DNA from: Asticcacaulis aquaticus
GTDB lineage: Bacteria; Pseudomonadota; Alphaproteobacteria; Caulobacterales; Caulobacteraceae
NCBI RefSeq assembly: GCF_028550415.1
Contig: NZ_JAQQKX010000007.1
Span: 124,001-188,000, forward strand
DNA: 64,000 bases
Reading direction: 5' to 3'
This document shows, in pieces, positions 9,751 through 59,244 of this stretch. The notes under the pieces are model-generated. The model was not told where the DNA came from. It made no database searches and worked only from the letters and a program-made list of their open reading frames with translations. The translations under genes were made by a program, and so were the position numbers. Position 1 is the first letter of the stretch. Each line of letters begins with the position of its first letter.

Positions 9751-9880
9751 CCTTCCCCCTCTCCCTGAGGGAGAGGGTCGGGGTGAGGGGGAAATGCCAG
9801 CCACGACTAACCAGTTCCCCCTCATCCGGGCTTTGCCCACCTTCTCCCCCTTCAAAAAAACTAAGAATGGGGAGAAGGAA
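9751..9880. repeat. Family B palindromic element, copy 1
   Basis: Hairpin CCCTCTCCC-tga-GGGAGAGGG followed by GGGTGAGGGGGA, a loop, then TTCCCCCTCATCC and a second, diverged hairpin. Its right part (9861-9880) encodes the last residues and stop codon of the gp14 gene. Confidence 0.9.
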
Positions 9881-10307
9881 ACTTGAACGCCGCGACCACA
9901 TGCCGACGCCACCATGTCCCCAGCCACGTCTCGACGACCGCGTGGCCCCAATAGGCATGGATCAGAGCCGCCCGTGGATCGGCCATATCGCCCGCACTCA
10001 GGATCGCGGCGTGCTTGGCCACCGCGCTGGGCCTCAGCCGAAACACCAGCACATCGCCTGCCTGCGCCTCGGTCACCGCGACCGGCGTCAAATAGCGCGC
10101 CAGCCCTTCCAACAAGACCTCACGCCCGCCGATTTCGGCCCAATCGCCGCTATAGGGCGGCAGGTCCCAGGGCTCATCGCCTTGCATCGCCCGCCACACC
10201 CCGCGCACCAGTCCCAGACAGTCGCAGCCGACGCCTTTGAGGCTCATCCGGTGCTGATAGGGTGTGCCGATCCAGCTTCGCGCCTCTTGCAAAACCGCGT
10301 CACACAC
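9861..10307 (-). CDS. Gene transfer agent NlpC/P60 peptidase (gp14-like)
   Basis: 148 residues. NlpC/P60 cysteine peptidase fold: catalytic Cys30 in GCDCLGLV and His99 in VAKHAAIL, plus the AGDVLVFR strand typical of the family. In RcGTA the equivalent protein sits in the baseplate and is thought to cut recipient peptidoglycan during DNA entry. The start overlaps the gp13 stop by 8 bp, indicating translational coupling. The C-terminal FPSPHS and the TAG stop are encoded by the family B repeat, so the natural C-terminus has probably been replaced. Confidence 0.92.
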   Translation of the reverse strand: MCDAVLQEARSWIGTPYQHRMSLKGVGCDCLGLVRGVWRAMQGDEPWDLPPYSGDWAEIGGREVLLEGLARYLTPVAVTEAQAGDVLVFRLRPSAVAKHAAILSAGDMADPRAALIHAYWGHAVVETWLGTWWRRHVVAAFKFPSPHS

Positions 10308-10953
10308 GACCGGACCCCGCGCGCGAGCGCCCGTCCATCACGTCGCCGGAGCGCGGATAAAGCGTAACGAAATCCTCCCCCGGCAGGTCTGGGAAGCCGC
10401 GAAAATTGAGCGCATTGTCATGCACGTCGTGGCACGTTGCATAGCGCTTGTCGCACGGGCCGCTGCCTGACGCGCCACATCGGGCATCGCCGAACACCGC
10501 GTCGCACAGCGGTGTGAACCGCCGCCCGATGACGCGCTGAAGCTTCGCCGCCGCACCTTCGACATGGGCGATGAAACCGCTGCCCCGCGCTTCGATCCGC
10601 GCCAAAGTGCCCGTACCCATCGTCACATAGTCCCCGCCTTGCCAATCGACGACGAAGCTTTCGACCGTCGCGCCGTCATAGAACCCCGCGCGGATATCGG
10701 CGGGATCGAGCGCGTCAGCGGTCAGCACGCCAGACACCGAAGCGTCCGATGCTTCCATGCCGAGATCGACCGACGCCGCCCCTTGCGTCAGACCGGTCGA
10801 AGCCCGGCACACGACGCCGAGCACCGTCAGGTCGCGGTCGTGATCGGTAAAGCCCAGTCGCTCGCCATCGCTGCGCGTAAGGATCCACGCATGGCAGAGT
10901 CGGGCCGCGCCCTGTGTCAGAGCTGTATTTATTGATTCCGGAATATGTCGCAT
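10300..10953 (-). CDS. Gene transfer agent baseplate hub protein (gp13-like, DUF2163)
   Basis: 217 residues from the ATG at 10953 (AAGGGG ribosome-binding site). Phage conserved protein of the DUF2163/BR0599 type. The C-terminal region carries four cysteines, C150, C159, C167 and C174, in FTPLCDAVFGDARCG...PCDKRYATC, then NALNFRGFPDLPGEDF. This Cys pattern is the signature of GTA gp13 hub proteins and is consistent with a bound metal or iron-sulfur cluster. An upstream in-frame extension would be encoded by a family A repeat and is rejected. Confidence 0.92.
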   Translation of the reverse strand: MRHIPESINTALTQGAARLCHAWILTRSDGERLGFTDHDRDLTVLGVVCRASTGLTQGAASVDLGMEASDASVSGVLTADALDPADIRAGFYDGATVESFVVDWQGGDYVTMGTGTLARIEARGSGFIAHVEGAAAKLQRVIGRRFTPLCDAVFGDARCGASGSGPCDKRYATCHDVHDNALNFRGFPDLPGEDFVTLYPRSGDVMDGRSRAGSGRV

Positions 10954-10965
10954 AATCGCCCCTTC

Positions 10966-11140
10966 ATACCTCCCCAGCTTGCTGGGGAGGGGGACCGCAC
11001 GAGCCACGAAGTGGTGAGATGTGGTGGTGGGGGTTCTTACTTACTTTCTTGCGACGGGGATTGTTGAATCTCCGCAAGATACCCCACCACCCCTTTGCTT
11101 CGCAAAGCGGTCCCCCTCCCCGGCATAGCCAGGGAGGTAT
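10966..11140. repeat. Family A palindromic element, copy 3
   Basis: Lies between gp12 and gp13 of the GTA cluster. Outer hairpins CCTCCCCAGCTTGCTGGGGAGG and CCCGGCATAGCCAGGG, inner GGTGGTGGGG / CCCCACCACC. It fills almost the entire 190-bp gap in an otherwise tightly packed operon. Confidence 0.9.
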
Positions 11141-11142
11141 AA

Positions 11143-11751
11143 TTAAACTCGAATTTCCACCAGCGGCACGGCGGCCACGCGGCCCGCATCGAAGCCTTCC
11201 AGCGTCAGGTCCAGCCGGTCGGAATCGAACCGCACCGGCGTATCGAACTCGAACCCGGCGTGGACGGTCACGCCCACCGCCGGGGCGGTCTCAAACGTCA
11301 CCAGACCCGTCGTGTGATCGACGCTGAACGCGGTCGTGACGACGCCGTTCAGCGCCACCTTCACCGTGTCCGCGACCGGCTTGGCGATCGTTCGCGTCAC
11401 CCCGCCATAGGTTTTGGTCAGCTGCAACACCGTTCGCACACCGTCGCCCGTGCCGATCATCTGATCCACCGCCGCCACCGCCGCATTGACCGCACCGCTT
11501 TTGAAATCGGCGAAATCCTTGAAACGGAAGCCGTACAACGGCCCCTCACGCGCCTCGAAAAAGGCCAGCAACTCCGCCGCGTCGTGCAGCGAGCGCACCC
11601 CCGCCCCGATCAGATACCGGCGGCGGCCCTGCGCCCAGGGACTGACCCGTTGCTCAAAACCGGACGCCAGAGTCGTGATCTGCGTCCGGCGTTCGATCCC
11701 CGCCCCTGACCCGAAGGCCAGACGCACGGGAAAATTCACCTCGTGAAACAT
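11143..11751 (-). CDS. Gene transfer agent distal tail protein (gp12-like, DUF2460)
   Basis: 202 residues from the second ATG of the pair at 11754/11751, which is best spaced from GGGGAG. DUF2460 signature: FHEVNFPVRLAFGSGAG near the N-terminus, RRYLIGAGVRSLHDAAELLAFFEAREGPLYGFRFKDFADFKS in the middle (only parts are diagnostic: ARGPLYGFRFKD-like), and GVTVHAGFEFDTPVRFDSDRL near the end. It is the adaptor joining tail tube to baseplate in RcGTA. It ends 3 bp from a family A repeat. The gap to the tape-measure stop upstream is 14 bp. Confidence 0.92.
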   Translation of the reverse strand: MFHEVNFPVRLAFGSGAGIERRTQITTLASGFEQRVSPWAQGRRRYLIGAGVRSLHDAAELLAFFEAREGPLYGFRFKDFADFKSGAVNAAVAAVDQMIGTGDGVRTVLQLTKTYGGVTRTIAKPVADTVKVALNGVVTTAFSVDHTTGLVTFETAPAVGVTVHAGFEFDTPVRFDSDRLDLTLEGFDAGRVAAVPLVEIRV

Positions 11752-11765
11752 CATCGGCTCCCCAA

Positions 11766-12293
11766 TCATCTGAGTGAAAGTCTGGCCGCCCGGTTGAGGG
11801 CCGCCGCGATCTGCGCTTCCGACCGCACGAGGCTGTCCGCTCCGCCCGCGATCGTCAGCGACACATTGACGGTTGGCCCGCTACCGCCACCGATCTCGCC
11901 CGAAGTTGCCGGACGGAACCATTCCGGCCCGCGCTCGCCGACCAGATACGAGCCGCCCGCCGTGACGTAGCCGCCATCGGCCCGCGCCCCGGAAAACGAC
12001 GTCGCGGCGCCGTTCAGCATGTCGCCCAAAACGCTGGCCAGCGAACCACCGCCGGACGTACCGGCGGCTGCATTGACCGCATTGATGATCGCGGCGGCCA
12101 GTTCCGACAGGCTGATCTCGCCGTCCTTCGCCGCCCGGCTTAGCGACCGCGCCAGCGACGATCCGGCTTTCGAGAACGCCTGATCGATGGCGTCGGCGGA
12201 GTCCTGCGCCGGACCTTTGAGGGCCTGCAAGGCGATGGCCGCCTCGTTGATTTGGGCGGTCAGGCTGCCCAGTTCACTGTTCATCTTCGTCAT
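11766..12293 (-). CDS. Gene transfer agent tape-measure protein (gp11-like)
   Basis: 175 residues, short as expected for GTA particles with short-tailed siphovirus architecture. The helical N-terminal half (LTAQINEAAIALQALKGPA) leads to a Gly/Ala-rich middle and the C-terminal segment FSGARADGGYVTAGGSYLVGERGPEWFRPATSG, of which GGYVTAG and VGERGPEWF are the recognisable tape-measure end motifs. It overlaps the upstream chaperone gene by 20 bp. A start three codons later (12284) is also possible. Confidence 0.88.
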   Translation of the reverse strand: MTKMNSELGSLTAQINEAAIALQALKGPAQDSADAIDQAFSKAGSSLARSLSRAAKDGEISLSELAAAIINAVNAAAGTSGGGSLASVLGDMLNGAATSFSGARADGGYVTAGGSYLVGERGPEWFRPATSGEIGGGSGPTVNVSLTIAGGADSLVRSEAQIAAALNRAARLSLR

Positions 12294-12462
12294 CCGGAAA
12301 AAGGGTCATCAGGTCGCTTAAGGCACGCCGATCCAGCGGCAGAGCCTGTTCCGGCGGCGCGCTCAGCCACAACCATTCGCGCCAGCTTAGACGCCAGAAC
12401 GCGTCCGGCGTCAGGCGCAGATCGACTACGCCCAGACGGAACATCGCGGGCCAGTCAGTCAT
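12274..12462 (-). CDS. Gene transfer agent tail assembly chaperone (gp10.1-like)
   Basis: 62 residues. Short tryptophan-rich protein of the phage tail assembly chaperone type found between gp10 and gp11 in GTA clusters (MFRLGVVDLRLTPDAFWRLSWREW, with the conserved L.P..FW.L...E pattern). It ends in an acidic tail (FPDDEDEQ). Overlaps gp10 by 8 bp and the tape-measure gene by 20 bp, so translation is probably coupled and expression ratios fixed. Confidence 0.85.
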   Translation of the reverse strand: MTDWPAMFRLGVVDLRLTPDAFWRLSWREWLWLSAPPEQALPLDRRALSDLMTLFPDDEDEQ

Positions 12463-12754
12463 GCGTGTTCATCGCCCGGAACGCCGCGACGATGGCTTCG
12501 ATGGCCTCACTCAGACTGATGTGCAGAACCGGCAACTCGATCTCATCGAGCACCAGCGCTTTCAGCACCGCCCAGACGTCCTTCGCGCCCATGGTCGCCA
12601 GTTTCGCGGCCAGCGCCTCGAAGCCCGTCACGTCAAAATGGGTCTCAAGTTCAGCCAGGGCTTTCAGCGTGACGCACAGGCGCAGATCCTTGCCGCCGAT
12701 ACAGGCGACGACCTCGCCGCGTGCCTTGTTGATGAGGGGCGTCTCAGAGGGCAT
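12455..12754 (-). CDS. Gene transfer agent gp10-like tail assembly protein
   Basis: 99 residues. GTA gp10/phage tail chaperone family: NKARGEV near the N-terminus, then LCVTLKALAELETHFDVTGFEALAAKL, of which the LTLGALAELE-like core is diagnostic, ending with IEAIVAAFRAM. Overlaps the gp9 stop by 11 bp. It likely assists tail tube polymerisation around the tape measure. Confidence 0.9.
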   Translation of the reverse strand: MPSETPLINKARGEVVACIGGKDLRLCVTLKALAELETHFDVTGFEALAAKLATMGAKDVWAVLKALVLDEIELPVLHISLSEAIEAIVAAFRAMNTHD

Positions 12755-13151
12755 CGAACACCACCTCTCCCGCCGAGGCGAGCGTCAGAGCAAAGGTCGC
12801 CTCGGCGTCGTGATCGCCCGCATAGTCCAGCGAGGCGATCAGAAACGCGCCGGAAAACTGACCGAAATCGGGGACGATGATCTGCCAGTTTCGCGCCGTC
12901 TGGGCGAAGAAGGCTTCGCGCATGATGGCGTCCGACGCGGCGTCTTTGAAGACGCCGGAGCCGGAGACCGAAAGCGCCTTGACGCCCGCTCCGGCCATCA
13001 GCTCGCGCCAGCCGTTCGGACTTTGCGAGTCGGTGACATCGACGGTTTTTGCATTGAGCGACACGGTGCGCGCCCGAAGGCCCGCGACGGTGACGTAAGC
13101 CGTCCCGTCATGAATTTTCAGCAGCATGTCGCGGCCTTTTTGCAGGGCCAT
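12744..13151 (-). CDS. Gene transfer agent major tail tube protein (gp9-like, TP901-1 family)
   Basis: 135 residues from the ATG at 13151. TP901-1 major tail family: MALQKGRDMLLKI start, VAGLRARTVSLNAKTVDVT (typical LR...S.N...VDVT pattern), SPNGWRELMAGAG and the C-terminal ATFALTLASAGEVVFDA. Forms the stacked hexameric tube. Upstream in-frame codons are encoded by a family B repeat and are excluded from the gene. Confidence 0.93.
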   Translation of the reverse strand: MALQKGRDMLLKIHDGTAYVTVAGLRARTVSLNAKTVDVTDSQSPNGWRELMAGAGVKALSVSGSGVFKDAASDAIMREAFFAQTARNWQIIVPDFGQFSGAFLIASLDYAGDHDAEATFALTLASAGEVVFDAL

Positions 13152-13167
13152 GGGAGTCTCCAATAAT

Positions 13168-13327
13168 CCCCTCTCCCTGAGGGAGAGGGTTAGGGTGAGG
13201 GGGAAATGGTGGGCATACGAACGGTCCATGAGCTTGGGGAAACAGCTCCCCCTCACCCGGTGCTACGCACCACCCATCGCTGGCGAAAGCTGTACTTTCG
13301 CTGGCGCTATACCCTCAGGGAGAGGGG
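13168..13327. repeat. Family B palindromic element, copy 2, with nested hairpin module
   Basis: Left half: CCCTCTCCC-tga-GGGAGAGGG then TTAGGGTGAGGGGGA. Right half: CCCCTCACCCGG, then the nested hairpin (CGCTGGCGAAAGC / GCTTTCGC with loop near 13288-13292), then CCCTCAGGGAGAGGGG. The right part encodes the C-terminus of the gp8 gene. Confidence 0.9.
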
Positions 13328-13730
13328 ATTCAGTCACCACGCGCAGACGCAGGAGGCCATAGGTCGACCGCTTATCGGCGCTGCGGAACACGTCGAGATA
13401 GCTGACACGCACCGAAACCAGATGCTGATCGTCGAGATTCAGGGCTGCCTGATCGAGCACCACGCGCAATTCCGACGCGATGGCTCTCGCCTCTTCGGTG
13501 CCGGAAAAGCGCGACACCGCCATGAGGGTGATGACCTGTTCGGTGGCCGTATCCGCACCGCTTACGGCCTGCGCTTCGACGCGCGTCAAAGCCACATACG
13601 GAAAGACCGGATCGGGCGGCACTTCGTCGTAAATCCGCACATTGCTGCCGAGCCAGATTTTCAACGTGTCCTGCGCTTTGAGGTGCGCGATCAACGCCTT
13701 TTGCACGTCGCGTAAAGGATCGAGCGCCAT
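13263..13730 (-). CDS. Gene transfer agent tail terminator (gp8-like, DUF3168) with repeat-encoded tail
   Basis: 155 residues. DUF3168 tail-completion family: PLRDVQKALIAHLKAQDTL at the N-terminus, IYDEVPPDPVFPYVALTRVEA in the middle (only the VP....FPYV core is diagnostic), and a final YGLLRLRVVTE strand. The last 21 residues, starting SPLPEGIAPAKVQ, are a direct translation of the family B repeat with its nested hairpin, which also provides the TAG stop. The ancestral protein presumably ended close to RVVTE. The start overlaps the gp7 stop by 1 base. It caps the tail tube at the head junction. Confidence 0.9.
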   Translation of the reverse strand: MALDPLRDVQKALIAHLKAQDTLKIWLGSNVRIYDEVPPDPVFPYVALTRVEAQAVSGADTATEQVITLMAVSRFSGTEEARAIASELRVVLDQAALNLDDQHLVSVRVSYLDVFRSADKRSTYGLLRLRVVTESPLPEGIAPAKVQLSPAMGGA

Positions 13731-14053
13731 CAGTGCACCCGCCCGAGACGCACGCGCACGGTCCCGTTCTGGTCTTCGTCGACAGACAAGACCGTCCAGT
13801 CTTGCGTGCGGATTTTGAGATAACCGCCGCGTTCGATGCCGGAGGCCGATCGACAGGTAAATTCCGCATACTGACGGATCAGGGTTTCCCCTTTCGATGC
13901 TTGCGATTCCTGCGACACGTCCGTTTGGAAATCGCCCCAGGCCGTGCCTTCATATTGCGGCATCTGGGTCGATCCTCCGTATACGGTTTCGGTGCAGATC
14001 AGACGGTAGATCTTCGCCGGGGTCTTCAGATCGGCGGCTTTCAGAGGATTCAT
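13730..14053 (-). CDS. Gene transfer agent head closure protein (gp7-like)
   Basis: 107 residues from the ATG at 14053, which overlaps the gp6 stop (ATGA). Head-tail adaptor/SPP1 gp16-like fold: an N-terminal AADLKTPAKIYRL, GTAWGDFQTDVS and RYAEFTCR-like strands, closing with YLKIRTQDWTVLSVDE, of which W.V.SVD is family-typical. It seals the packaged head before the tail docks. An in-frame GTG ten codons upstream lies inside gp6 and is less likely. Confidence 0.87.
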   Translation of the reverse strand: MNPLKAADLKTPAKIYRLICTETVYGGSTQMPQYEGTAWGDFQTDVSQESQASKGETLIRQYAEFTCRSASGIERGGYLKIRTQDWTVLSVDEDQNGTVRVRLGRVH

Positions 14054-14319
14054 AGCCGCACCTCGCGATAGGGGGCGATCCACGGCTCAAGGCCTTCAAG
14101 CGACACCTCGCCTTCGCCGCGCACGGCATAGGCCCGCGCGGTGAGATCAAGGACCGCCAGCCGCAACGGCGCGGCGGAATCCGCATCGAGCACGAGGCCC
14201 AGAGCGGTCTCCAGACGGGCCTTGGCGGCGGCCACCAGCGTGGCGATTAACGCGTCTTCGTCGTCGTGCGACACGCGCAGGAAGAGCTTCGCTTCGGTGA
14301 GCGAAACAGGGTCTGACAT
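14050..14319 (-). CDS. Gene transfer agent head-tail connector (gp6-like)
   Basis: 89 residues from the ATG at 14319, chosen for its GGAG nine bases upstream. The helical core has LTEAKLFLRVSHDDEDALI, of which the (S/T)L.EAK.(F/H)LRV.....D.LI pattern is the signature of phage gp6-like connectors, followed by the helix AAAKARLETALGLVL. Forms the ring below the portal. An upstream extension would be translated from a family A repeat and is rejected. Confidence 0.9.
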   Translation of the reverse strand: MSDPVSLTEAKLFLRVSHDDEDALIATLVAAAKARLETALGLVLDADSAAPLRLAVLDLTARAYAVRGEGEVSLEGLEPWIAPYREVRL

Positions 14320-14335
14320 GGGGAAAAGCTCCATC

Positions 14336-14504
14336 ATACCTCCCCAACTTGTTGGGGAGGGGGACCGCGCCCGAAGGGCGGGGTGGTGGGGATTATTGCT
14401 TACGTGCGATAGCGGGTATGGAAACAAAGTAAGATACCCCACCACCACATCTCACTTGCTTCGCAAGCTCGTGCGGTCCCCCTCCCCGACAAGTCAGGGA
14501 GGAG
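14336..14504. repeat. Family A palindromic element, copy 4
   Basis: Between gp6 and the capsid gene of the GTA cluster. Hairpin CCTCCCCAACTTGTTGGGGAGG, inner GGGGTGGTGGGG / CCCCACCACC, terminal CTCCCCGACAAGTCAGGGAGG. Confidence 0.9.
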
Positions 14505-14511
14505 TGAGGTT

Positions 14512-15720
14512 TTAGCTTGCCGCGATCTTGAGCACCTTGATCGCATCGAAGTTCTGCACGCCGCCGCCGACGCGTTTCGTCGTGTAAAACAGCACGTACG
14601 GTTTTGCCGAATACGGGTCGCGCAACACGCTGAGGCCCGCGCGATCGACGATCAGATACCCCTTGGCGAAGTCGCCGAACGCCACCGGCAAATTACCCGC
14701 ACCGACATCGGGCATGGCCTCGATCTCCTGCACCGGATAGCCGAGCAGGTGCGGCAATTGCCCGGCCTGAGTCGACGGCTGCCAGATATACTGACCGTCC
14801 GAGCCCTTGAACTTGCGGATCTTGGCCGCCGTCCGGCGGTTCATGACGAAGTGCGCGTTCGGGCGGTACTTGGCCTCGGTCGCGTAGGTCAGGTCGATCA
14901 GGGCATCGACCGGGCCGGAGGATGCAAAATCCGCCGCCGCACCCGACACGATATGGCCGATCTGCCCCCAGGTCGCCGAGGCATTGGCTGCGGTCGTGTA
15001 GTTGAGGAAGCCTTTCGGTTTGTTGGTGCCGTTGCCGTTGACGAAGGCCTCGGTTTCCTGCGCCGCGAAGCTGTCCTCGATCTCGCTGGCCAGCCACTCA
15101 TCCAGATTGATAAAGCTGTCGTCGAGCAGGGCCTGGGTCGCGGCGGGAGACGCATAAAGCTCCGCCGCCGGGAATTCCAGCAGGGCCAGCGTCGCCGGAT
15201 CGGTTTCCGGACGCGCGGCGGTCTCTGCGACCCAGCCGGCGACGACACCGGCGGTCGAGACCGGCTTTTTGAACGTCGCCGCGCCGACCGTGCGGACGGT
15301 GGCCAGCGAACGCATCGGTGAGACCTGCGCCAGACGGCGTTCGACGAAGCGTTCGGTCTCATAGGGCGCCAGGGCCCCGGACCCCGACGCGGTCGACAAA
15401 CCGGCCTTCAGTTCCAGCGTCACGCGACCCGAGCGCATATAGCCGTCCCAGGCGGATTTCGCCTCAGTCAGGTCCGGTTGCGCGGCGGCGATATCGGGAC
15501 GCGCCTTCTGGCTCAGCAGGCGGTCGAGACGCGCCTGAGCCGCATTGAGGTCGCGGTCGATGCGTTCGACCTTGTCATCGAGCAGCCGATCGCCCTGTTT
15601 CTTTTCCAGCGCGTCGAGGCGCTGATCATTGGCCGATTTGAAGGCCTCGAAAGCCGACAGGACTTCGTGCAGGGCGGTTTTGACCTCGGTTGAGGGGATG
15701 ACGTGTTTCGTTTCGTTCAT
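14512..15720 (-). CDS. Gene transfer agent HK97-fold major capsid protein (gp5-like)
   Basis: 402 residues. Residues 1 to about 100 form a charged, coiled-coil-prone delta/scaffold domain (EAFKSANDQRLDALEKKQGD), removed by the prohead protease in relatives. The mature capsid begins near residue 105 and shows FKKPVSTAGVVAGWVAETA, LYASPAATQALLDDS, DEWLASEIEDSFAAQE, PKGFLNY and VVDRAGLSVLRDPY, a standard HK97-fold pattern. The downstream gene is gp6 and the upstream gene is the protease, as in RcGTA. Repeats of family A and B sit on its 3' and 5' sides. Confidence 0.95.
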   Translation of the reverse strand: MNETKHVIPSTEVKTALHEVLSAFEAFKSANDQRLDALEKKQGDRLLDDKVERIDRDLNAAQARLDRLLSQKARPDIAAAQPDLTEAKSAWDGYMRSGRVTLELKAGLSTASGSGALAPYETERFVERRLAQVSPMRSLATVRTVGAATFKKPVSTAGVVAGWVAETAARPETDPATLALLEFPAAELYASPAATQALLDDSFINLDEWLASEIEDSFAAQETEAFVNGNGTNKPKGFLNYTTAANASATWGQIGHIVSGAAADFASSGPVDALIDLTYATEAKYRPNAHFVMNRRTAAKIRKFKGSDGQYIWQPSTQAGQLPHLLGYPVQEIEAMPDVGAGNLPVAFGDFAKGYLIVDRAGLSVLRDPYSAKPYVLFYTTKRVGGGVQNFDAIKVLKIAAS

Positions 15721-15740
15721 ATGTTTTCTCCAGCTTTAAA

Positions 15741-15873
15741 CCCCCTCTCCCCCATTCTTCACTATTGAAGTGGGAGAGGGCTGGGGTGAGGGGGAAATGT
15801 CAGACACTTAGTGCGGTGTGACAGTTCCCCCTCATCCGGCCCTATCGGGCCACCTTCTCCCTCAGGGAGAAGG
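15741..15873. repeat. Family B palindromic element, copy 3
   Basis: CCCTCTCCC...GGGAGAGGG, then TGGGGTGAGGGGGAAA, loop, GTTCCCCCTCATCCGG, then CTCCCTCAGGGAGAAGG. The TGA stop of the prohead protease gene (15862-15864) lies in the terminal hairpin. Confidence 0.9.
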
Positions 15874-16272
15874 AATGGTAAACCGCGCGCTGTTGAGCAT
15901 CGGGAAAGTCACCAGCGACACCTCCCACAGCGCCACGGCGGTCAGAACGCGCAGCCGCCCGGTCTCGTCGAAACGGCTCTTTTCTGTGCGAAATCCGATG
16001 CTCAGACCGTCGATCACACCCGCCTCGCTCAGCGCCATGACCATGCGGCCTTCGGGGGTGGCGTCGATGATCCGGCCCCGGACGAACAGACCGGTCTCGT
16101 CCTCGACCACCTCGTCCCAGACGCCGATCGGCGCTGTGACCTTGTGCTGATAAAGCATCCGCACGCCTTCCGGCCCGGTGCGCAGCAGGCTGTCGCGAAA
16201 GGCCCCCGGCACCACGACATCGTCGTTCAGATCGCGCTCATAAAATCTGGACGCATAGCCCTCGATGATCAT
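15862..16272 (-). CDS. Gene transfer agent prohead protease (gp4-like, HK97 family U35)
   Basis: 136 residues. HK97 prohead protease: IIEGYASRFYERDLNDDVV and GAFRDSL at the start, MLYQHK with the candidate catalytic His43, GLFVRGRI, GLSIGFR and LWEVSLVTFPM with Ser119. It trims the capsid delta domain during head maturation. The last residues (TIPSP) and the stop codon are supplied by a family B repeat, implying a small C-terminal replacement. Start overlaps the upstream small gene's stop by 4 bp. Confidence 0.92.
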   Translation of the reverse strand: MIIEGYASRFYERDLNDDVVVPGAFRDSLLRTGPEGVRMLYQHKVTAPIGVWDEVVEDETGLFVRGRIIDATPEGRMVMALSEAGVIDGLSIGFRTEKSRFDETGRLRVLTAVALWEVSLVTFPMLNSARFTIPSP

Positions 16273-16493
16273 ATGCGCGCCTCGTCCAGCTTGGTTTCGA
16301 TCCGCGCCAGAGCGGCGCGTGTCGCCAGCGCCTGTTCCTCAAGACGCGCCAGTCGCTCGACCACCCCGGCCTGCTGCTGAAAGCGCGCCTCCAGCGTATC
16401 GAGTCTCGCCCCGGCGCGCCCGAACCACATCAAAGCCGCCGCCGATTGCAGGATGATCGTCATGATCACCCCGCCAGTGAAAATCTCACTCAT
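16269..16493 (-). CDS. Gene transfer agent small membrane/coiled-coil protein (gp3.5-like)
   Basis: 74 residues. An N-terminal hydrophobic helix (ILQSAAALMWFG) is followed by a coiled coil (LDTLEARFQQQAGVVERLARLEEQ). It sits between portal and protease genes, where RcGTA-type clusters carry the small ORF g3.5. The ATG at 16493 overlaps the portal stop, and the gene overlaps the protease start by 4 bp, so the reading frame is well supported by packing. Function unknown. Confidence 0.78.
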   Translation of the reverse strand: MSEIFTGGVIMTIILQSAAALMWFGRAGARLDTLEARFQQQAGVVERLARLEEQALATRAALARIETKLDEARI

Positions 16494-17673
16494 AGGTATC
16501 TCCGTAGGCGGAAAGTTTCTCACTGAGCCCCGCCAGACGCCGCTTTTCGCTGGCGTCCATAAAGGTCGCCGCCTCCAGCCGTGCCCATAGGGCCTCGCGC
16601 TCCGCCGACAGGGCGGGCAGGCCGTCGATATCGGCAACAATCCGCGCGCCGGGGAACTTCGGACTGAGCCAGTTCGACAGCGACCGCGTCGTCTTTTCGA
16701 CCAGCGGCAGGACCGTGTGACGCCAGAAGGCAGCATTGGCCTCGCGGTAATTGGCGTAGGCATTGTCGCCGGGAATCCCCAGCAATTGCGCCGGGATACC
16801 GAAGGCCAGAGCGATGTCGCGCGCGGCGGCGTGCTTGCCTTCGATGAAGTCCATATCGGCGGGCGACAGCGACATCGGCTTCCAGTCGAGTCCGCCCTCT
16901 AACAACAGAGGCCGCCCGGCATTGTCGATCCCGGCGTGGTCTTCGGTCAGTTGGCTTTTCAGCCGCTCGAACTGCTCCGCGCTCAGGCGATCAGACGCCT
17001 TGCCGCCATAGACCAGCGCCCCTGATGGTCGCGCCGCGTTATCGAGCAGGGCCTTGTTCCACGCCCCCGACGCATTGTGGACGTCGATGGCGAAGGCCGC
17101 GGCCTCCAGCGGCGAAAAGCCGTACCAGTCGTCGAGCGGATGCCACAGCTTCAGGTGCAGCACCTTCAGCCAGCCGGTACCGTCGCGGGCGATGCGCGTG
17201 GCGCGGCCATTGACGGTATAGTCATAGGCCTCGGGCCAGCCCTTGGCATTAGGCACGACCTGCACGCGCTCGGACCGGAGGGCCCACAGCTCGAACGGCG
17301 CACCGTCGATCTCGGCGGCTTCGATATAGGCGTTGCCCGCGGTTTGCAGCGACGCATAGAGCGCCTCGCGCAGATCGGCCCCGCCCTGTTCGGCGTTGGG
17401 GCGTTCGAGCAGCGCTGATAAAGGGTGCGCCGTGTCGTGCCGCCCGTCGCAATCGACGCGCAACGGCACCGACGCGGCGGCTTCGGCGATCATCCGCACG
17501 CAGCGATAGGCGACGGCGTTTTTCGCGAAGCCTTCGCGGGCGAGGGCCTCATATTCGCGCGGCGTCCACTGCGCCCGCCCCTGCCCCGTCAGAGCGATCA
17601 GGGCGCGGGTTTGCGAGTCCTTTGTTTCGGGCACAGTCCGTCGCTGCCCGAAAAAGGTGTTGAAAGAGAGCAT
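16486..17673 (-). CDS. Gene transfer agent portal protein (gp3-like)
   Basis: 395 residues, the usual size for GTA portals. HK97 portal family: FAKNAVAYRCVRMIAEAAASVPL, HPLSALLERPN, GNAYIE, VLHLKLWHPLDDWYGFSPLEAAA (core YG.SPL.AA), PSGALVY, the long helix ending EGKHAAARDIALAFGIPAQLLGIPGDNAYANY (LG.PGDN.Y.NY core), and a C-terminal ADIDGLPALSAEREALW. Dodecameric ring through which DNA is packaged. The ATG at 17673 is chosen because upstream in-frame sequence is translated from a family B hairpin. Confidence 0.95.
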   Translation of the reverse strand: MLSFNTFFGQRRTVPETKDSQTRALIALTGQGRAQWTPREYEALAREGFAKNAVAYRCVRMIAEAAASVPLRVDCDGRHDTAHPLSALLERPNAEQGGADLREALYASLQTAGNAYIEAAEIDGAPFELWALRSERVQVVPNAKGWPEAYDYTVNGRATRIARDGTGWLKVLHLKLWHPLDDWYGFSPLEAAAFAIDVHNASGAWNKALLDNAARPSGALVYGGKASDRLSAEQFERLKSQLTEDHAGIDNAGRPLLLEGGLDWKPMSLSPADMDFIEGKHAAARDIALAFGIPAQLLGIPGDNAYANYREANAAFWRHTVLPLVEKTTRSLSNWLSPKFPGARIVADIDGLPALSAEREALWARLEAATFMDASEKRRLAGLSEKLSAYGDTYE

Positions 17674-17690
17674 ATCGATCCTCGTTAAAC

Positions 17691-17713
17691 CCCCTCTCCC
17701 TGAGGGAGAGGGA
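17691..17713. repeat. Family B solitary hairpin, copy 4
   Basis: Only the CCCCTCTCCC-tga-GGGAGAGGG hairpin is present, between the terminase and portal genes. It shows that the hairpin unit can occur on its own. Confidence 0.85.
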
Positions 17714-17717
17714 AAAG

Positions 17718-19555: not shown

Positions 19556-19565
19556 GGGCCTTTTC

Positions 19566-19760
19566 ATACCTCCCCAACTTGTTTGGGGAGGGGGACCGCA
19601 CGACGCCGCGTTATCGCGGCTAGATGCGGTGGTGGGGGCCGTCTCGGTGGTAACACCACGCTCTTCGGGCCAGCCATTTTTGCGCGAGCTCTACGCGAGC
19701 CCCCCCTCCGTCTTTTTGCGTTCCGCAAAAATCCACCTCCCCCAGTAAACTGGGGGAGTA
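19566..19760. repeat. Family A palindromic element, copy 5 (variant right arm)
   Basis: Left arm is standard (CCTCCCCAACTTGTTTGGGGAGG, then GGTGGTGGGG). The right arm differs: gcgttccgcaaaaa then CCACCTCCCCCAG...CTGGGGGAG. Copy 6 shares this variant arm, defining an A subtype. Confidence 0.88.
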
Positions 19761-20259: not shown

Positions 20260-20374
20260 AGTTCCCCCTCACCCGGCGCTTCGCACCACCCTCTCCCTCA
20301 AGGGAGAGGGAAAAGAAAGAAACCGCCTGTAATCCCCTCTCTCTTGAGGGAGAGGGTTAGGGTGAGGGGGAAAA
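20260..20374. repeat. Family B palindromic element, copy 5 (outward arrangement)
   Basis: Here the two half-units are joined back to back: TTCCCCCTCACCCGG...CCCTCTCCC-tcaa-GGGAGAGGG, a 23-nt spacer, then CCCCTCTCTC-ttga-GGGAGAGGG and TTAGGGTGAGGGGGAA. This is the reverse of copies 1-3 and indicates modular assembly. Confidence 0.88.
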
Positions 20375-20454
20375 GTCGGCTGCATACGCGAAATTCAAAC
20401 ACTTTGCAAAGAACCCTTAAACCGCTACATGCTCGCAAGATGTTTTTGCTGGTC

Positions 20455-36344: not shown

Positions 36345-36462
36345 GCTACATTTCCACCGCGGAAAGTCACGAAACCGTCCCACAACGGAACGTCCGGCTT
36401 TCGTTGAGAGGCTCCGTTGCAACGGCGATGCCGCAACTTTTTCCCTCTCCTTGCGATTTTTT

Positions 36463-36592
36463 CCCTCTCCCTTGAGGGAGAGGGTCGGGATGCGCAGCAG
36501 ACCGGGGTGAGGGGGAAAAGTATCACCGCGCTCGTATTCGGCAATTCCCACTCACCCTGCGCTACGCGCTTCCCTCTCCCTCAGGGAGAGGG
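36463..36592. repeat. Family B palindromic element, copy 6
   Basis: CCCTCTCCC-ttga-GGGAGAGGG, then GGGGTGAGGGGGAAA, loop, CACTCACCCTGCG, then CCCTCTCCC-tca-GGGAGAGGG. The right hairpin encodes the C-terminus of the LysR gene. Confidence 0.9.
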
Positions 36593-37443
36593 ACTTTCAC
36601 ATACCCCTCAAACGCTTTCCCCGCCTCGGTCAGATGCCCCGGCAGACTATAGCGGGGGGTGAACAGCGCAATCGTCCGCCGGTGCATAAACCCTTCCAGC
36701 CCGACCTTCGCCACGCCTTGCGCGGCAAAGCTTTCCGGCATCACCGTCGCCCCAATGCCCGCCGCGACCATGCTCAACGCGCGTTCGTCATTCGCCGTGC
36801 GATAGGCCAGCGGCGGACGCACATTGCGGTCGGTGAAATAGCGGCTGGTTTCCGACAGGACCTCGCAGCGCGAGCGCACGATCATCGGCTGATCCGCCAG
36901 ATATTCCCCGCGCACCGAAGCCTTACCGGCCAGCGGATGCGTGTCGGCCACGGCCAGCACATAGCCTTCGTCATAGAGCGGGACAGACGCCCCATCCTCG
37001 ACTCGGCGGATCGACAGGGCGTAGTCTATCCCGCGCTCATCGAAGCGGTTTTGCAGCTCCTGCTCGGTGCCGTCGAACAGGTCGAACCGGACGTCGGCAC
37101 CCGTCGCGGCAAAGCCTTTCAGCAAGTTGGACACCCATGCCGACGGCAGGGTCTGCAACACCCCCAGCCGCAAAACCCTGGCCTGTGCGGACGCCGCCAC
37201 CTCAGCCATCGCCAGATTGCATTCGTGCAGGATTGTCTTGGCACGTGGCAGGAACCGCGCCCCGGCGGAGGTCAGGAAGACGCGTTTATTGTTGCGCTCG
37301 AACAGGGTGACGCCGAGCTGTTCCTCAAGGCGCTTTATCCCCGCCGACAGCGACGGCTGCGTGATCAGGCACGCCGCGGCGGCCTTGGTAAAGGAGCCGG
37401 TCTCGACGACCGCAAGGAAGTAACGAAGGAGATATGGTTCCAA
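36562..37443 (-). CDS. LysR-type transcriptional regulator
   Basis: 293 residues. Winged HTH at about 1-60 (YFLAVVETGSFTKAAAACLITQPSLSAGIKRLEEQLGVTLFER is the classic LysR start, of which TQPSLSAGIKRLE is the recognition region), then an effector-binding domain (about 88-280) with LRLGVLQTLPSAWV and LADQPMIVRSRCE. It is divergent from the leucine catabolic operon with a 283-bp gap, so it may regulate that operon; this is inference from position. The last ten residues (VPLPEGEGSA) and the TAG stop are encoded by a family B repeat. Confidence 0.9.
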   Translation of the reverse strand: MEPYLLRYFLAVVETGSFTKAAAACLITQPSLSAGIKRLEEQLGVTLFERNNKRVFLTSAGARFLPRAKTILHECNLAMAEVAASAQARVLRLGVLQTLPSAWVSNLLKGFAATGADVRFDLFDGTEQELQNRFDERGIDYALSIRRVEDGASVPLYDEGYVLAVADTHPLAGKASVRGEYLADQPMIVRSRCEVLSETSRYFTDRNVRPPLAYRTANDERALSMVAAGIGATVMPESFAAQGVAKVGLEGFMHRRTIALFTPRYSLPGHLTEAGKAFEGYVKVPLPEGEGSA

Positions 37444-40126: not shown

Positions 40127-40269
40127 CCCCTCGCCCCTTTGGGGTATAGCGCCAGCGAAAGTACAGCTTTCGCCAGCGATGGGTGGCGCACAGCGCCGGG
40201 TGAGGGGGAGTCCCCCGCGCCGCCTGTTGGCCCCCTCACCCCGACCCTCTCCCCATTGGGGAGAGGGGG
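40127..40269. repeat. Family B palindromic element, copy 7, with nested hairpin module
   Basis: Opens CCCCTCGCCCCTTTGGGG, then the nested hairpin gccagcgaaagtacagctttcgc, CCGGGTGAGGGGGA, loop, GGCCCCCTCACCC, closing CTCTCCCCATTGGGGAGAGGGGG. Nested module almost identical to copies 2 and 10. Confidence 0.9.
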
Positions 40270-40281
40270 AAGTGACATCCC

Positions 40282-42045
40282 ATGTTTCGTAAACTCCTCA
40301 TTGCCAATCGCGGGGAAATCGCCTGCCGCATCATCCGCACCTGTCAGCGTCTCGGCATCCACACCGTCGCGGTCCATAGCGATGCTGACACCAGGGCCCT
40401 CTTCGTGCGCATGGCCGACGAAGCCTACAATATCGGTCCGCCCCCTTCGGCGCAAAGCTATCTGCGCGGCGACACCATCATCGCGGTCGCCCAGAAAACC
40501 GGCGCCGAAGCCATCCACCCCGGCTACGGTTTCCTGTCGGAAAACGCCGAATTCGCGGAAGCTTGCGCCGCCGCCGGGATCGTTTTCGTCGGCCCGACGC
40601 CCGAGGCGATCCGCGCCATGGCGCTCAAAGGCGCGGCGAAATCGCTGATGGAAACCGCCGGTGTACCGGTCACACCCGGCTATCACGGCGCGGCTCAGGA
40701 CGAACAGACACTTCTGTCTCAGGCGCGCGAGATCGGCTACCCAGTCCTCATCAAGGCCGTAGCGGGCGGCGGCGGCAAGGGGATGCGTCGCGTCGATGAC
40801 GATTCTATATTTATGGAATTATTAGCTTCCGCGCAGGCCGAAGGACGCTCGTCTTTTGGTGATGATCGCGTGCTGATCGAGAAATATATCGAAGTGCCGC
40901 GCCATATCGAGATCCAGTTGTTTGCGGACTCGCACGGCAATGTCGTTCACCTGTTCGAGCGCGACTGTTCGCTGCAACGCCGCCACCAGAAGGTCATCGA
41001 GGAAGCCCCGGCTCCCGGCCTGCCCGACGCCATGCGCGCGGCCATGGGTGACGCCGCCGTGCGCGCCGCCAAGGCCATCGGTTATCGGGGGGCGGGGACG
41101 ATTGAGTTCATCGTGGACGTCTCCAAGGGTATCGATTCGGCGAAGTTCTATTTCATGGAAATGAACACGCGGCTTCAGGTCGAACACCCGGTCACCGAGA
41201 TGATCACCGGTCTCGATCTGGTCGAATGGCAGTTGCGCGTGGCGGCGGGCGAACCGCTGCCGAAGACACAAAGCGACCTCACCCTGACCGGTCACGCCAT
41301 CGAGGCGCGCCTCTATGCCGAAGACCCGGAAGCCGACTTTATGCCCGCGACCGGCCCCCTCACCCGCCTGTCGTTCCCGGCCACCGTGCGCGCCGACAGC
41401 GCCGTCGAACAAGGCGATGAGGTCAGCGTCTTTTACGACCCGATGATCAGCAAACTCATCGTCCATGGCCGCGACCGCGACGACGCCTTGACCAAGATGC
41501 GCGACGCCCTCATCCGCACGCGCGTCGAGGGTCTGCGCACCAATCTCGGCTTTCTGCGTCGTATTGTGTCGAACACGGATTTCCGCGCAGGCAACATCGA
41601 TACCGGCTTTATCGGGCGGCATATCGAAAGCCTCACCGCGCCATGGCCAGATTTGGGGCTGGATACCGAAACCAGCGGCCCATCGCCGTGGAACGATCCG
41701 ACCGGCTTCCGGCTCAACCTGCCGTCTGCAGCGCCGGTTGATCTCAGGCGCATGACGGTCACCACCGACGACCACAGCACCTCAGACGTCATCGCGCCCA
41801 TGCCGGGGCTGGTCGTCGCGGTCCACGTCAGGGATGGCGACGTCGTCGAGAAAAACACGCCGCTGATCGTGCTCGAAGCCATGAAGATCCAGATGACGCT
41901 GAAGGCCCCGCGCGCCGGAACGGTGACGGGTCTGATGGTCTCGGTCGGGGATCAGGTAAAGGAAAAAACGGTGCTGGCAACCACCCTTCCCCCCTCACCC
42001 GGTCCTTCGGACCACCCTCTCCCTCAGGGAGAGGGAAATGTGTAG
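40282..42045 (+). CDS. liuD: Methylcrotonoyl-CoA carboxylase alpha (biotin-containing) subunit
   Basis: 587 residues. Biotin carboxylase domain about 1-445 ([57 protein letters not shown] core), and a C-terminal biotinyl domain from about 503 with the attachment site EAMKIQ (Lys535; the usual EAMKM has Ile in place of Met). The stretch between them is only about 60 residues, too short for the full BT domain of about 650-residue relatives. The final 18 residues ([18 protein letters not shown]) are translated from a family B repeat. ATP-dependent carboxylation of biotin for leucine degradation. Confidence 0.93.
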
Positions 42046-42084
42046 CCCCCTCTCCCTGAGGGAGAGGGTTGGGGTGAGGGGGAA
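41987..42084. repeat. Family B palindromic element, copy 8 (outward arrangement)
   Basis: CCCCCTCACCCGG...CCCTCTCCC-tca-GGGAGAGGG, 13-nt spacer, CCCTCTCCC-tga-GGGAGAGGG, TTGGGGTGAGGGGGAA. The left half lies inside the carboxylase alpha coding sequence, which ends within the spacer. Confidence 0.9.
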
Positions 42085-42105
42085 CTGTTTCCAAGGAAGA
42101 CGCCC

Positions 42106-43278: not shown

Positions 43279-43386
43279 CCCCCTCTCCCCGTGGGGGAGA
43301 GGGCTGGGGTGAGGGGGGCGTGGCCCTGACGGTTTACCCCCTCACCCGGCCTTCGGCCACCCTCTCCCCCATGGGGCGAGGGGGTT
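43279..43386. repeat. Family B palindromic element, copy 9
   Basis: CCCTCTCCCCGTGGGGGAGAGGG, CTGGGGTGAGGGGGG, loop, TACCCCCTCACCCGG, CCCTCTCCCCCATGGGGCGAGGG. Begins 13 bp after the isovaleryl-CoA dehydrogenase stop. Confidence 0.9.
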
Positions 43387-47113: not shown

Positions 47114-47121
47114 GATAAAAA

Positions 47122-49403: not shown

Positions 49404-49566
49404 TTCCCTCGCCCCAATGGGGTATAGCGCCAGCGAAAGTATAGCTTTCGCCAGCGGTGGGTGGCTGAAGCGTAGCGAAAGCCGGGTGAGGGGGAGTCAA
49501 GCGCACCGTCTGCAGCCCCCTCACCCTGCGCTTCGCGCATCCCTCTCCCCATGGGGGCGAGGGAGA
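49404..49566. repeat. Family B palindromic element, copy 10, with nested hairpin module
   Basis: CCCTCGCCCCAATGGGG, nested hairpin gccagcgaaagtatagctttcgc, AAAGCCGGGTGAGGGGGA, loop, CCCCCTCACCCTGCGC, CCCTCTCCCCATGGGGGCGAGGG. Between leucine dehydrogenase and the acyl-CoA dehydrogenase. Confidence 0.9.
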
Positions 49567-57325: not shown

Positions 57326-57341
57326 GTTAATTGGACTTAAC
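57326..57341. promoter_or_regulatory. Inverted repeat upstream of hppD
   Basis: GTTAA-ttggac-TTAAC lies 65 bp before the hppD start (57406) in the divergent region. Possible operator; regulator unknown. Confidence 0.35.
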
Positions 57342-57405
57342 GATAGTTTTGTGACATTTCCCATTTCACACGCTTCTGTGCAAAAAGCGCGTGGTCGAGG
57401 GGAAT

Positions 57406-58470
57406 ATGCCGGTCAGTTGTCAGAATCCATTGGGGTTAGAGGGGTTCGCCTTTGTCGAATTCACCGCGCCCGACCCTGACGCGCAAGGACGGCAACTGGA
57501 GCGGCTGGGCTTTATCGAGACGCACCGCCATCCGGGCCAAAAGGTCAGCCTCTACCGGCAGGGCGACATCCATTTCATCCTCAATGCCGAGCCGTTCAGC
57601 CACGCCTCGGACTTCGCCACGCGGCACGGGCCTTCGGCCTGCGGCATGGGGTTCCGCGTCGCCGATGCCGCCCGCGCGCATCGTCTGGCACTTCAGCACG
57701 GCGCGACACCCGTTGAGGGCGTCTATACCCCGTTCGGCGACGACCTGCTGGCCCTGCAAGGCGTCGGCGGTACGCTGATCTATCTGATCGATGACTCGCA
57801 GTTTTCGGACGACGTCCTGTCCGGTTGGGTGCCATTGACCAACCCGCCGGTACGTCAGGTCCACGGCGCGGGTCTGACGCGCATCGACCACCTGACGCAC
57901 GACCTGCCCGCCGGTCAGATGCAGGTGTGGGCCGATTTCTATACCCGCGTCTTCGGCTTCGAGTCGCAGCGCTATTTCGAGGTTGACGACCGCCTGATGG
58001 GGGTCGACAGCCAGACCCTGATCGCGCCCGACGGCCACATCCGCATCCCGTTGAACGAGAGCCGCAACGCCTTCAACGCGACCGAGGCCTTTCTGAGTGC
58101 TTATGGCGGCGAAGGCATCCAGCACATCGCGCTGGAAACGCGGGATATCTATGCGACCGTCGAAGGTCTCCGCGCGCGCGGCGTGGCGTTTCAGGCCGTG
58201 CCCGATCCCTATTACGAGATGCTCGACCGCCGCGTGCCGCACCACGACGAAGACGTGGCGCGGATGAAGGCCGACGGCATCCTGATCGACGGCAATGCCC
58301 GCCGCGACGGGATCTTGTTGCAGGTCTTCACCGAAAACACCTTCGGTCCGGTCTTTTTCGAGATCGTTCAGCGCAAGGGTGGCCATGCGGGCTTTGGCGG
58401 TAGCAACTCTCAGGCCCTGATGGAGGCGGCGGGGCTGGATCAGATGCGTAAAGGGTTGCTGCGGGTCTAA
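57406..58470 (+). CDS. hppD: 4-hydroxyphenylpyruvate dioxygenase
   Basis: 354 residues from the ATG at 57406 with GAGGGG just upstream; an in-frame GTG at 57391 is less likely. Vicinal oxygen chelate fold in two halves. Iron ligands: H162 in RIDHLTHD, H240 in GIQHIALET and E319 in VFFEIVQRKG, the classic HPPD facial triad. GFG(G)SN near 335 matches the C-terminal family motif. Converts 4-hydroxyphenylpyruvate to homogentisate in tyrosine degradation. Convergent with the methyltransferase gene, the stop codons overlapping by 4 bp. No homogentisate pathway genes are nearby. Confidence 0.95.
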   Translation: MPVSCQNPLGLEGFAFVEFTAPDPDAQGRQLERLGFIETHRHPGQKVSLYRQGDIHFILNAEPFSHASDFATRHGPSACGMGFRVADAARAHRLALQHGATPVEGVYTPFGDDLLALQGVGGTLIYLIDDSQFSDDVLSGWVPLTNPPVRQVHGAGLTRIDHLTHDLPAGQMQVWADFYTRVFGFESQRYFEVDDRLMGVDSQTLIAPDGHIRIPLNESRNAFNATEAFLSAYGGEGIQHIALETRDIYATVEGLRARGVAFQAVPDPYYEMLDRRVPHHDEDVARMKADGILIDGNARRDGILLQVFTENTFGPVFFEIVQRKGGHAGFGGSNSQALMEAAGLDQMRKGLLRV

Positions 58471-59027
58471 CCTTTGCGGACAAAGCTATCATATACATGC
58501 GTCACATCGTCGAAACGGACGCGGGCGGGCTGACCGGCGAAGGGCTGCGGCGTGAAGGCCGCGTCGGTCAGAACGGCGGCGACCGGATCGTCGATCTTGT
58601 CGGTGTTCCAGCCGAGCAGCAACGGCGCGCCGGGTTTCAGGATATGGCTCAGGGCGTCCAGAGCCTTGACCTGCTGCGGTACGGAATCGACGCCGTAGCC
58701 GAGCACGCCGTTACAAATCACCCCATCAAACGCGATATCGGCAAACAGCGCCGCATCGCAGATATCCCCCGTCCGGTGATGGCCCTGACGTCCGAAGCGC
58801 TCGGCGCGCGGATCGATATCGGTGGTCCACACCTTCGCGCCCTTGGCTTCCAGCACGCTGTAATAGTCGCGCGTATAGCCCCGGCAGCCGATAAACAGGA
58901 TCGAGCCGCCGACCTCGGCAAAGGCGGGGAGATAGGCGTCGCGCATCAGTTTGCGGTCGGGGAGCTGATGGATCGCCGCGCGCTTCGGCTGGAAGGTTTT
59001 GCTGATCCACTGCTGTAAGGCGTTCAT
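58467..59027 (-). CDS. Class I SAM-dependent methyltransferase-like protein
   Basis: 186 residues from the ATG at 59027 with AGGGAG upstream. Rossmann-like methyltransferase features: ILFIGCRGYTRDYYSVLEAKGAKVWTTDIDP, with GCRGYT in the SAM-binding loop and the acidic TTDIDP at the end of strand 2, followed by HRTGDICD and DGVICNGVLGYGVDS (motif-IV-like) and HILKPGAPLLLGWNTD. It may be a methyltransferase or a related non-catalytic protein; substrate unknown. Convergent with hppD. Confidence 0.75.
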   Translation of the reverse strand: MNALQQWISKTFQPKRAAIHQLPDRKLMRDAYLPAFAEVGGSILFIGCRGYTRDYYSVLEAKGAKVWTTDIDPRAERFGRQGHHRTGDICDAALFADIAFDGVICNGVLGYGVDSVPQQVKALDALSHILKPGAPLLLGWNTDKIDDPVAAVLTDAAFTPQPFAGQPARVRFDDVTHVYDSFVRKG

Positions 59028-59100
59028 ATCGGCTCCCTGAGTTAGGCAGGAGCGTATAACAAAGGGGGAGTGTGTCAAACTTGTAATGTCCGCTTATCTT

Positions 59101-59244
59101 TCCCTCTCCCTGAGGGAGAGGGAAGTCCGAAGGGCAGGGTGAGGGGGAAATGGTAGAAGCGGACTCGGTATAGCGCTTGGTAACAGTTCCCCCTCACCCG
59201 GCTCACGCTTCGCTCCAGCCACCCTCTCCCTCAAGGGAGAGGGG
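59101..59244. repeat. Family B palindromic element, copy 11
   Basis: CCCTCTCCC-tga-GGGAGAGGG, GGGTGAGGGGGAA, loop, GTTCCCCCTCACCCGGC, CCCTCTCCC-tcaa-GGGAGAGGGG. Its end overlaps the last 14 bases of the potassium channel gene, whose C-terminus PLSPLP and stop it encodes. Confidence 0.9.

What the first reader, a model, noticed from the sequence alone, without database searches (positions are those of the whole stretch)
9861..59244. Family B repeats supply the stop codon of six different genes
The 3' ends of gp14 (FPSPHS), gp8 (21 residues), gp4 (TIPSP), the LysR gene (VPLPEGEGSA), carboxylase alpha (about 18 residues from PPSPGP) and the potassium channel (PLSPLP) lie inside copies of the same repeat. 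All read the repeat on a strand giving Pro/Ser/Glu-rich, disordered ends. Either insertion at or just before stop codons is tolerated in this genome, or these hairpins are targeted to gene ends. It recalls the Rickettsia palindromic elements that insert in frame.
Basis: partly seen in the sequence, partly recalled or inferred. Interest (0 to 1): 0.75.

Follow-up and report, generated by a model that had tools for sequence, protein, structure and literature searches.

The report
BoxC-type palindromes packed against stop codons
A short hairpin-forming repeat, related to the BoxC element of E. coli, sits directly behind the stop codons of many genes in an Asticcacaulis bacterium, and in some genes it landed a few codons early and now encodes the protein's last residues and its stop.

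Summary
In detail: six genes in the window end inside family B copies (11 copies there). Genome-wide this is a minority outcome, 10 of 89 mapped copies, and the window is unusually rich in it (6 of 11 against 4 of 78). The main pattern is abutment: of 82 copies with a gene 3' end beside them, 55 start 0-15 nt after the stop. In tandem gaps with at least 40 nt to spare, 20 of 35 lie within 10 nt of the stop; 5.7 are expected from uniform placement. The repeat is an inverted dimer of the known BoxC/PIT/"TM" intrastrand-triplex motif; one half equals an E. coli copy over 34 nt. The genome has no RAYT (PF01797) gene, so it is not a RAYT-driven REP by that test. Orthologues show that insertions just before the old stop replaced or extended C-termini. 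Between species the same gene ends are often occupied again, at four junctions by another palindrome family. REPs near stops, and REPs that supply stops, are already in print: a new variant of a known kind. A bolder, untested reading is that the element's 3' arm also supplies the next gene's Shine-Dalgarno sequence.

The parts
9751..9882 (.). Family B dimer (right half diverged, CCTTCTCCCC type) between gp15 start (9740) and gp14; gp14 (9861-10247, -) ends inside it with FPSPHS*
   Evidence: G012 orthologue ends ..VVAAFRF* before its own element
13167..13335 (.). Family B dimer with a nested 38-nt palindrome; left half 13169-13202 identical to E. coli BoxC/TM copy 17; gp8 (13263-13730, -) ends inside it
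   Evidence: orthologues end ..RVVTEANPI* or ..TEAV*
15741..15877 (.). Family B dimer between capsid gene start (15720) and prohead protease (15862-16272, -), which ends inside it with IPSP*
17692..17714 (.). Single family B palindrome, 3 nt after the terminase stop (17718); no overlap
20262..20375 (.). Family B dimer, halves in the opposite (back-to-back) order, in a divergent gap; no stop beside it
36461..36594 (.). Family B dimer; LysR gene (36562-37443, -) ends inside it with VPLPEGEGSA*
40198..40273 (.). Right part of a family B dimer whose left half (from about 40135) holds the nested 38-nt palindrome; same place occupied in G012 and G015
41985..42087 (.). Family B pair, back-to-back; carboxylase alpha (40282-42045, +) reads one half and stops between the halves
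43279..43384 (.). Family B dimer 12 nt after the acyl-CoA dehydrogenase stop (43266); G015 is empty here, G012 carries another family
49484..49563 (.). Family B copy 3 nt after the stop of the gene at 49567 (-)
59100..59245 (.). Family B dimer; TrkA-type potassium channel (59231-60292, -) ends inside it with SPLP*

Best explanation
Family B is a roughly 100-145 bp inverted dimer of the BoxC/PIT/TM triplex-type palindrome; usually one half has a 3-nt second loop and the other a 12-25 nt loop. It has multiplied in a few Asticcacaulis lineages as a small non-coding repeat that does not depend on a resident RAYT gene. Copies are found mostly where a gene has just ended, commonly within 10-15 nt downstream of the stop. 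When a copy lies zero to a few codons before the old stop, the gene's last codons are replaced and it terminates in the repeat: one reading frame stops at once (PSP*, PLP*), another is open and gives PLPEGEG-type tails. Such ends persist because they change only a short, probably disordered tail. Shown: positions, anatomy, C-terminal replacement against orthologues, absence of PF01797, turnover at the same junctions. Inferred: that the repeat moves at all by insertion; that its position reflects mainly purifying selection plus a mild preference for AT-rich sites, of which the stop codon is one; and that a hairpin this close to a stop affects termination or mRNA decay, as reported for E. coli REPs.
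For: Motif identity over 34 nt to an E. coli BoxC/TM copy; 47 of 89 copies resolve as inverted dimers, 36 of 47 pairing a short-loop with a long-loop half; 55 of 82 copies with a stop-side neighbour start 0-15 nt after the stop; uniform placement rejected; divergent gaps avoided, 7 of 89 against 46 of 190 element-free gaps (p 9e-4); orthologous C-termini without the repeat; empty and filled sites at the same junctions; AT-rich outer flanks and fewer TGA stops, 12 of 62 against 114 of 322, p 0.017; no PF01797 in G000, G012, G015, the three richest genomes; very stable RNA folds for two copies.
Against: The AT peak in element-free gaps is confined to the stop codon and is too modest to explain the clustering alone; enrichment of TAA itself is not significant (p 0.10). 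No firm target duplication and no candidate transposase, so movement by insertion is inferred. In G015 most residual gaps are short and the wide-gap test is not significant. Gene ends rest on my own gene caller, not on curated annotation. The window's excess of stop overlaps (6 of 11) stays unexplained.
Confidence: 0.7

Rival explanations
1. Junction cassette: the element is kept because it punctuates operons. Its hairpin follows, or supplies, the upstream stop, and its 3' arm GGGAGAGGG, present in either orientation, supplies the downstream gene's Shine-Dalgarno sequence.
For: In tandem pairs with the next start within 20 nt, the only good anti-SD match lies in or straddles the element in 15 of 34 (G000) and 12 of 27 (G015) cases; within 25 nt the best match is in or straddling the element in 28 of 36, median energy -9.9 against -5.0 in 68 element-free genes.
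Against: 14 of 34 and 13 of 27 junctions have their own SD in the flank. The arm is paired in the predicted folds. In wide gaps starts are not closer than chance: 8 of 35 within 20 nt against 6.7, p 0.34. Many element-free genes lack a strong SD anyway. The anti-SD tail used is recalled.
Confidence: 0.15
2. Post-termination regulators: copies within 15 nt of the stop are selected to stall ribosomes and lower expression of the upstream gene, as reported for E. coli REPs.
For: 55 of 82 copies lie 0-15 nt after a stop; the effect and the 15-nt limit are described second-hand in PMC12306157 and PMC5082802; stable folds.
Against: No expression data here; copies turn over between close species, which argues against long-term selection at given genes; E. 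coli PIT/TM elements showed no promoter or terminator activity.
Confidence: 0.15
3. The six overlaps are chance: copies merely lie in intergenic DNA and a few happen to reach a stop.
For: Overlap is infrequent genome-wide (10 of 89) and in G015 (3 of 46 by automatic edges, one of them by a single base).
Against: Uniform placement is rejected for proximity, and orthologues show that older C-termini were replaced.
Confidence: 0.05

Closest known systems
BoxC / PIT element / TM (intrastrand triplex motif), PMC4666352
   Same: Same motif: window 13169-13202 equals the shown part of E. coli copy 17; inverted pairs that combine two subtypes in both organisms.
   Different: In E. [quoted passage not shown] Here copies abut stops, sometimes encode C-termini, and one half usually carries a long second loop.
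REP / BIME elements (GTAG and CGTC families, PMC3733652)
   Same: Palindromes, often inverted dimers, close (<20 bp) to 3' ends of ORFs; GTAG REP termini often provide the stop codon.
   Different: No GTAG/CGTC tag was looked for beyond the flank columns, which show none; no RAYT gene in the genome.
ERIC / RU-1 of enterobacteria (PMC2759123)
   Same: About 127-bp palindromic repeat that in some genes removes the normal stop and extends the C-terminus.
   Different: Different sequence and anatomy; no sequence comparison was run.
Rickettsia palindromic elements (RPE)
   Same: Can be read in frame: L049 (C-terminal) and L037 (18 residues inside an ORF).
   Different: RPEs are described as intragenic (and recall); here 2 of 89 copies are read right through.

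Membership tests
BoxC / PIT / TM | Sequence CCCTC[TG]CCC - loop - GGGGAGAGGG/GGGAGAGGG - loop - GGGTGAGGG | tested here: met
   34-nt identity with E. coli copy 17; 56 halves with a 3-nt second loop
BoxC / PIT / TM | Forms an intrastrand DNA triplex in vitro | not testable with these tools
   Reported for the E. coli oligonucleotide (section 20)
RAYT-associated REP | A Y1_Tnp (PF01797) gene in the genome or lineage | tested here: not met
   0 in G000; 4 of 25 genus genomes have one, and those four have 0 exact palindromes
BIME (inverted REP pairs) | Palindromic units in alternating orientation at regular spacing | tested here: met
   47 of 89 copies resolve as face-to-face dimers, 3 as back-to-back pairs, 29 as single halves, 10 unresolved
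Rickettsia RPE | Mostly inserted inside ORFs and kept in frame | tested here: not met
   2 of 89
Intrinsic terminator | G+C hairpin followed by a run of T | tested here: not met
   TTTTT within 10 nt of the edge in 2 of 178 flanks; in window 36400-44400, which holds four copies, none of the 6 terminator-like sites lies in one
MITE with target-site duplication | Direct repeat of the target on both sides | tested here: inconclusive
   47 dimers: abutting repeat 1.68 against 1.58 shuffled, p 0.30; longest shared word 2.96 against 2.69, p 0.03

The most novel reading that the evidence does not exclude
Several unrelated palindrome families in Asticcacaulis act as interchangeable gene-junction cassettes. 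Each brings a stop-proximal hairpin and ends, in either orientation, in a purine arm that matches anti-SD; they are therefore recruited again and again to the same operon junctions, where one copy can supply the upstream stop codon and the downstream ribosome-binding site at once.
Probability: 0.15. Interest if true: 0.75.

Novelty: new variant of a known kind. Interest (0 to 1): 0.45.

Why it matters
It ties the BoxC/PIT/TM motif, for which no function is established in the paper read, to gene ends, and offers natural cases with empty and filled orthologous sites in which a repeat rewrites a C-terminus and a stop codon. Repeated occupation of the same junctions by different families makes insertion bias and selection separable by comparing strains.

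Tried and rejected
RAYT mobilisation: rejected, no PF01797 in the three BoxC-rich genomes. A ~520-bp spacing of two similar halves in L066 suggested a composite unit; no direct repeat of 60 nt or more was found there. AT-rich target as the full explanation: rejected, the AT peak is the stop codon only. Terminator: rejected. The L038 stop flagged as inside an element was a fuzzy-edge artefact.

Frame use in the 10 overlaps (by eye): PLPEGEG-type 5 (gp8, LysR, L001, L024, L049); immediate-stop 4 (gp14 in a diverged half, protease, K-channel, L019); entry from the other half 1 (carboxylase); the SLRER-type frame 0. Too few to argue from.

Rows dropped and limits: elements near the ends of fetched stretches and duplicates of overlapping stretches. 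Of 72 tandem elements 59 entered the placement test; 8 with the stop inside the drawn edges (one of them L038) and 5 with another overlap or 400 nt or more of residual gap were left out; gp14 and gp8 stayed in because the pattern missed their diverged halves. One search's listing was cut, so some two-mismatch copies may be missing. Family labels are by pattern; G012 at junctions 34 and 3 was re-read by eye. Junction 40 was labelled differently in the two species, but the copy here looks like half of family A, so I do not count it as a family change.
Full report
What was checked. The window is G000:C7:124001-188000 of a 4.0-Mb genome in 38 contigs. I wrote a codon-usage gene caller and mapped family B copies with fuzzy patterns: 11 in the window.

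What the element is. Each half reads CCCTCTCCC - loop - GGGAGAGGG - second loop - GGGTGAGGGGG. Of 89 mapped copies, 47 resolve as two halves facing each other, 36 of these pairing a short-loop with a long-loop half; of 129 halves, 56 have a 3-nt and 73 a 12-25 nt second loop. In tandem pairs either half may lie next to the stop (17 against 16 among mixed dimers). This is the BoxC/PIT/TM motif, which in E. coli also pairs two subtypes in five of five close inverted pairs (PMC4666352: abstract, sections 15 and 18, part 1 of section 20, and passages seen). Window 13169-13202 equals the shown part of E. coli copy 17. A stretch like window 13167-13260 is matched, over about half its length in the rows shown, in 4,778 of 5,426 E. 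coli genomes; another copy matches 12 of 72,556 plasmid records, mostly of rhizobia and sphingomonads.

Where it sits. Four pattern searches gave 88 clusters; the 77 outside the window were fetched. 89 distinct elements were placed against genes: 72 in tandem gaps, 10 convergent, 7 divergent; element-free gaps of 30 nt or more split 124/20/46, so divergent gaps are avoided (p 9e-4). Of 82 elements with a stop on a neighbouring side, by automatic edges 55 start 0-15 nt after it, 9 overlap it and 18 lie further off. For 59 tandem elements the medians are 6 nt to the stop and 20 nt to the next start. Where at least 40 nt are free, 20 of 35 lie within 10 nt of the stop, against 5.7 for uniform placement keeping 8 nt before the start; 0 of 10,000 draws reached that. 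In G015, 46 elements from 43 stretches (40 of 66 listed places plus three stretches) gave medians of 7 and 14 nt in 34 tandem cases; with few wide gaps the same test is 3 of 9 against 1.3, p 0.14. Palindromes of the CCTCCCC/GGGGAGG type (families A and C) in the same loci show the bias too, 6 of 15 against 1.6, p 0.003, with no stop overlap in 20 tandem cases.

How often it supplies the stop. 10 of 89: the six plus L001, L019, L024 and L049. In L049 an ORF that looks like homogentisate dioxygenase (recalled from its N-terminus) reads the whole 141-bp copy and stops in the ATGA overlap with the next gene. In L037 a 51-bp copy gives 18 residues (PSPVGERDAPQGQGEGEP) in a Pro-rich linker inside a 269-residue ORF. 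In G015 the count is 3 of 46 by automatic edges, one by a single base. The window holds 6 of the 10 (p 1.3e-4), an excess I cannot explain beyond the after-the-fact choice of the window.

What was there before. Orthologues: gp14 ends ..VVAAFRF* in G012 and ..VVAAFKFPSPHS* here; in four other relatives it runs on into another palindrome. gp8 ends ..RVVTEANPI* or ..TEAV*-like, here ..RVVTESPLPEGIAPAKVQLSPAMGGA*. Carboxylase ends ..VLAAIE* in G012, here ..[24 protein letters not shown]. The K-channel has tails of similar length and no repeat in seven relatives; here and in G012 the last residues are repeat-coded. The protease has repeat-coded ends here, in G012 and in G015, a remnant palindrome in the L079/L083/L165/L177 group, and no repeat by eye in L080, L081, L082, L085. 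LysR has palindrome-coded residues at its end in all three species compared; here and in G015 the stop lies in the palindrome, in G012 a few codons beyond it. So copies zero to a few codons before the old stop replaced the ends of genes.

Turnover. Of 27 junctions alignable with G012 (gap here over 20 nt), 17 are occupied here; G012 carries a palindrome element at 15 of them by label (16 with junction 34 read by eye), and at 2 (3 by eye) of the other 10 (Fisher p 7e-4 by label, 9e-4 by eye). Shared descent inflates this, but at junctions 8, 16, 23 and 39 the family differs. Junction 39 is empty in G015 (overlapping GTGA), holds family B here and another family in G012, with RTGA kept on both sides. 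Junction 36 is empty here and in G012 and filled in G015. The terminase-portal gap is empty in L079 and filled in L083.

How it moves and acts. PF01797 is absent from G000, G012 and G015; four of 25 genus genomes have it, and none of those four holds the exact palindrome. No firm target duplication. Outer flanks are AT-rich for about four bases, and stops with a copy 0-15 nt behind them are less often TGA (12 of 62 against 114 of 322, p 0.017; TAA enrichment p 0.10); in 101 element-free cases the AT peak is the stop itself. Copies lack the T-run of terminators (2 of 178 flanks with TTTTT). Two copies fold as very stable RNA hairpins (z -5.9 and -6.3). REPs within 15 nt of a stop are reported to stall ribosomes in E. 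coli (Liang 2015, not held; described in passages of PMC12306157, and PMC5082802). By analogy many copies here may affect termination of the upstream gene; that is inference. The 3' arm is the only good anti-SD match at 15 of 34 (G000) and 12 of 27 (G015) close junctions, while 14 and 13 have their own SD; the arm is paired in the predicted folds, so its use is open.

Is it new? Stop-proximal REPs, and REP termini that provide the stop, are in print for GTAG REPs (PMC3733652: passages and section 15); loss of the stop by an RU-1 insertion is in print for enterobacteria (PMC2759123: passages). For BoxC/PIT/TM I saw no link to stop codons: the words do not occur in the main text of PMC4666352, and the 10 listed of 49 papers held no other relevant title. 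The string search listed 15 of 504 papers. New here, as far as these searches go: BoxC-type dimers abutting stops, C-terminal capture by them, and family turnover at the same junctions.

Noticed in passing
13283-13302, 40154-40173, 49432-49451; L001, L003, L023, L048, L076, L159 (two), L161: A 38-nt mini-palindrome (about TATAGCGCCAGCGAAAGTAYAGCTTTCGCCAGCGATGG) lies nested in the first hairpin of larger elements, family B and others: repeats inserted into repeats. 3 in the window, 0 expected; exact pattern in 7 of 217 loci.
   Followed up: partly
L037 about 1965-2774: A 269-residue ORF joins an FtsK-gamma-like N-terminus and a GapR/DUF2312-like C-terminus (names recalled, not searched) through a Pro-rich linker that contains a family B half.
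   Followed up: partly
3479-3663, 4863-5060, 10958-11145, 14328-14448, 19558-19760, 37453-37638, 46934-47119: A second palindromic family (A: CATACCTCCCC..GGGGAGG, GGTGGTGGGG) of about 160-190 bp with the same inverted-dimer plan also sits near stops.
   Followed up: partly
44409-44708 and 45321-45620: Two 300-nt copies, 76% identical, 912 bp apart, inside two minus-strand genes that may be paralogues.
   Followed up: no
6111-19281: GTA-like gene cluster whose gaps between genes hold palindromic elements in most of the seven Asticcacaulis relatives compared, often of other families.
   Followed up: partly
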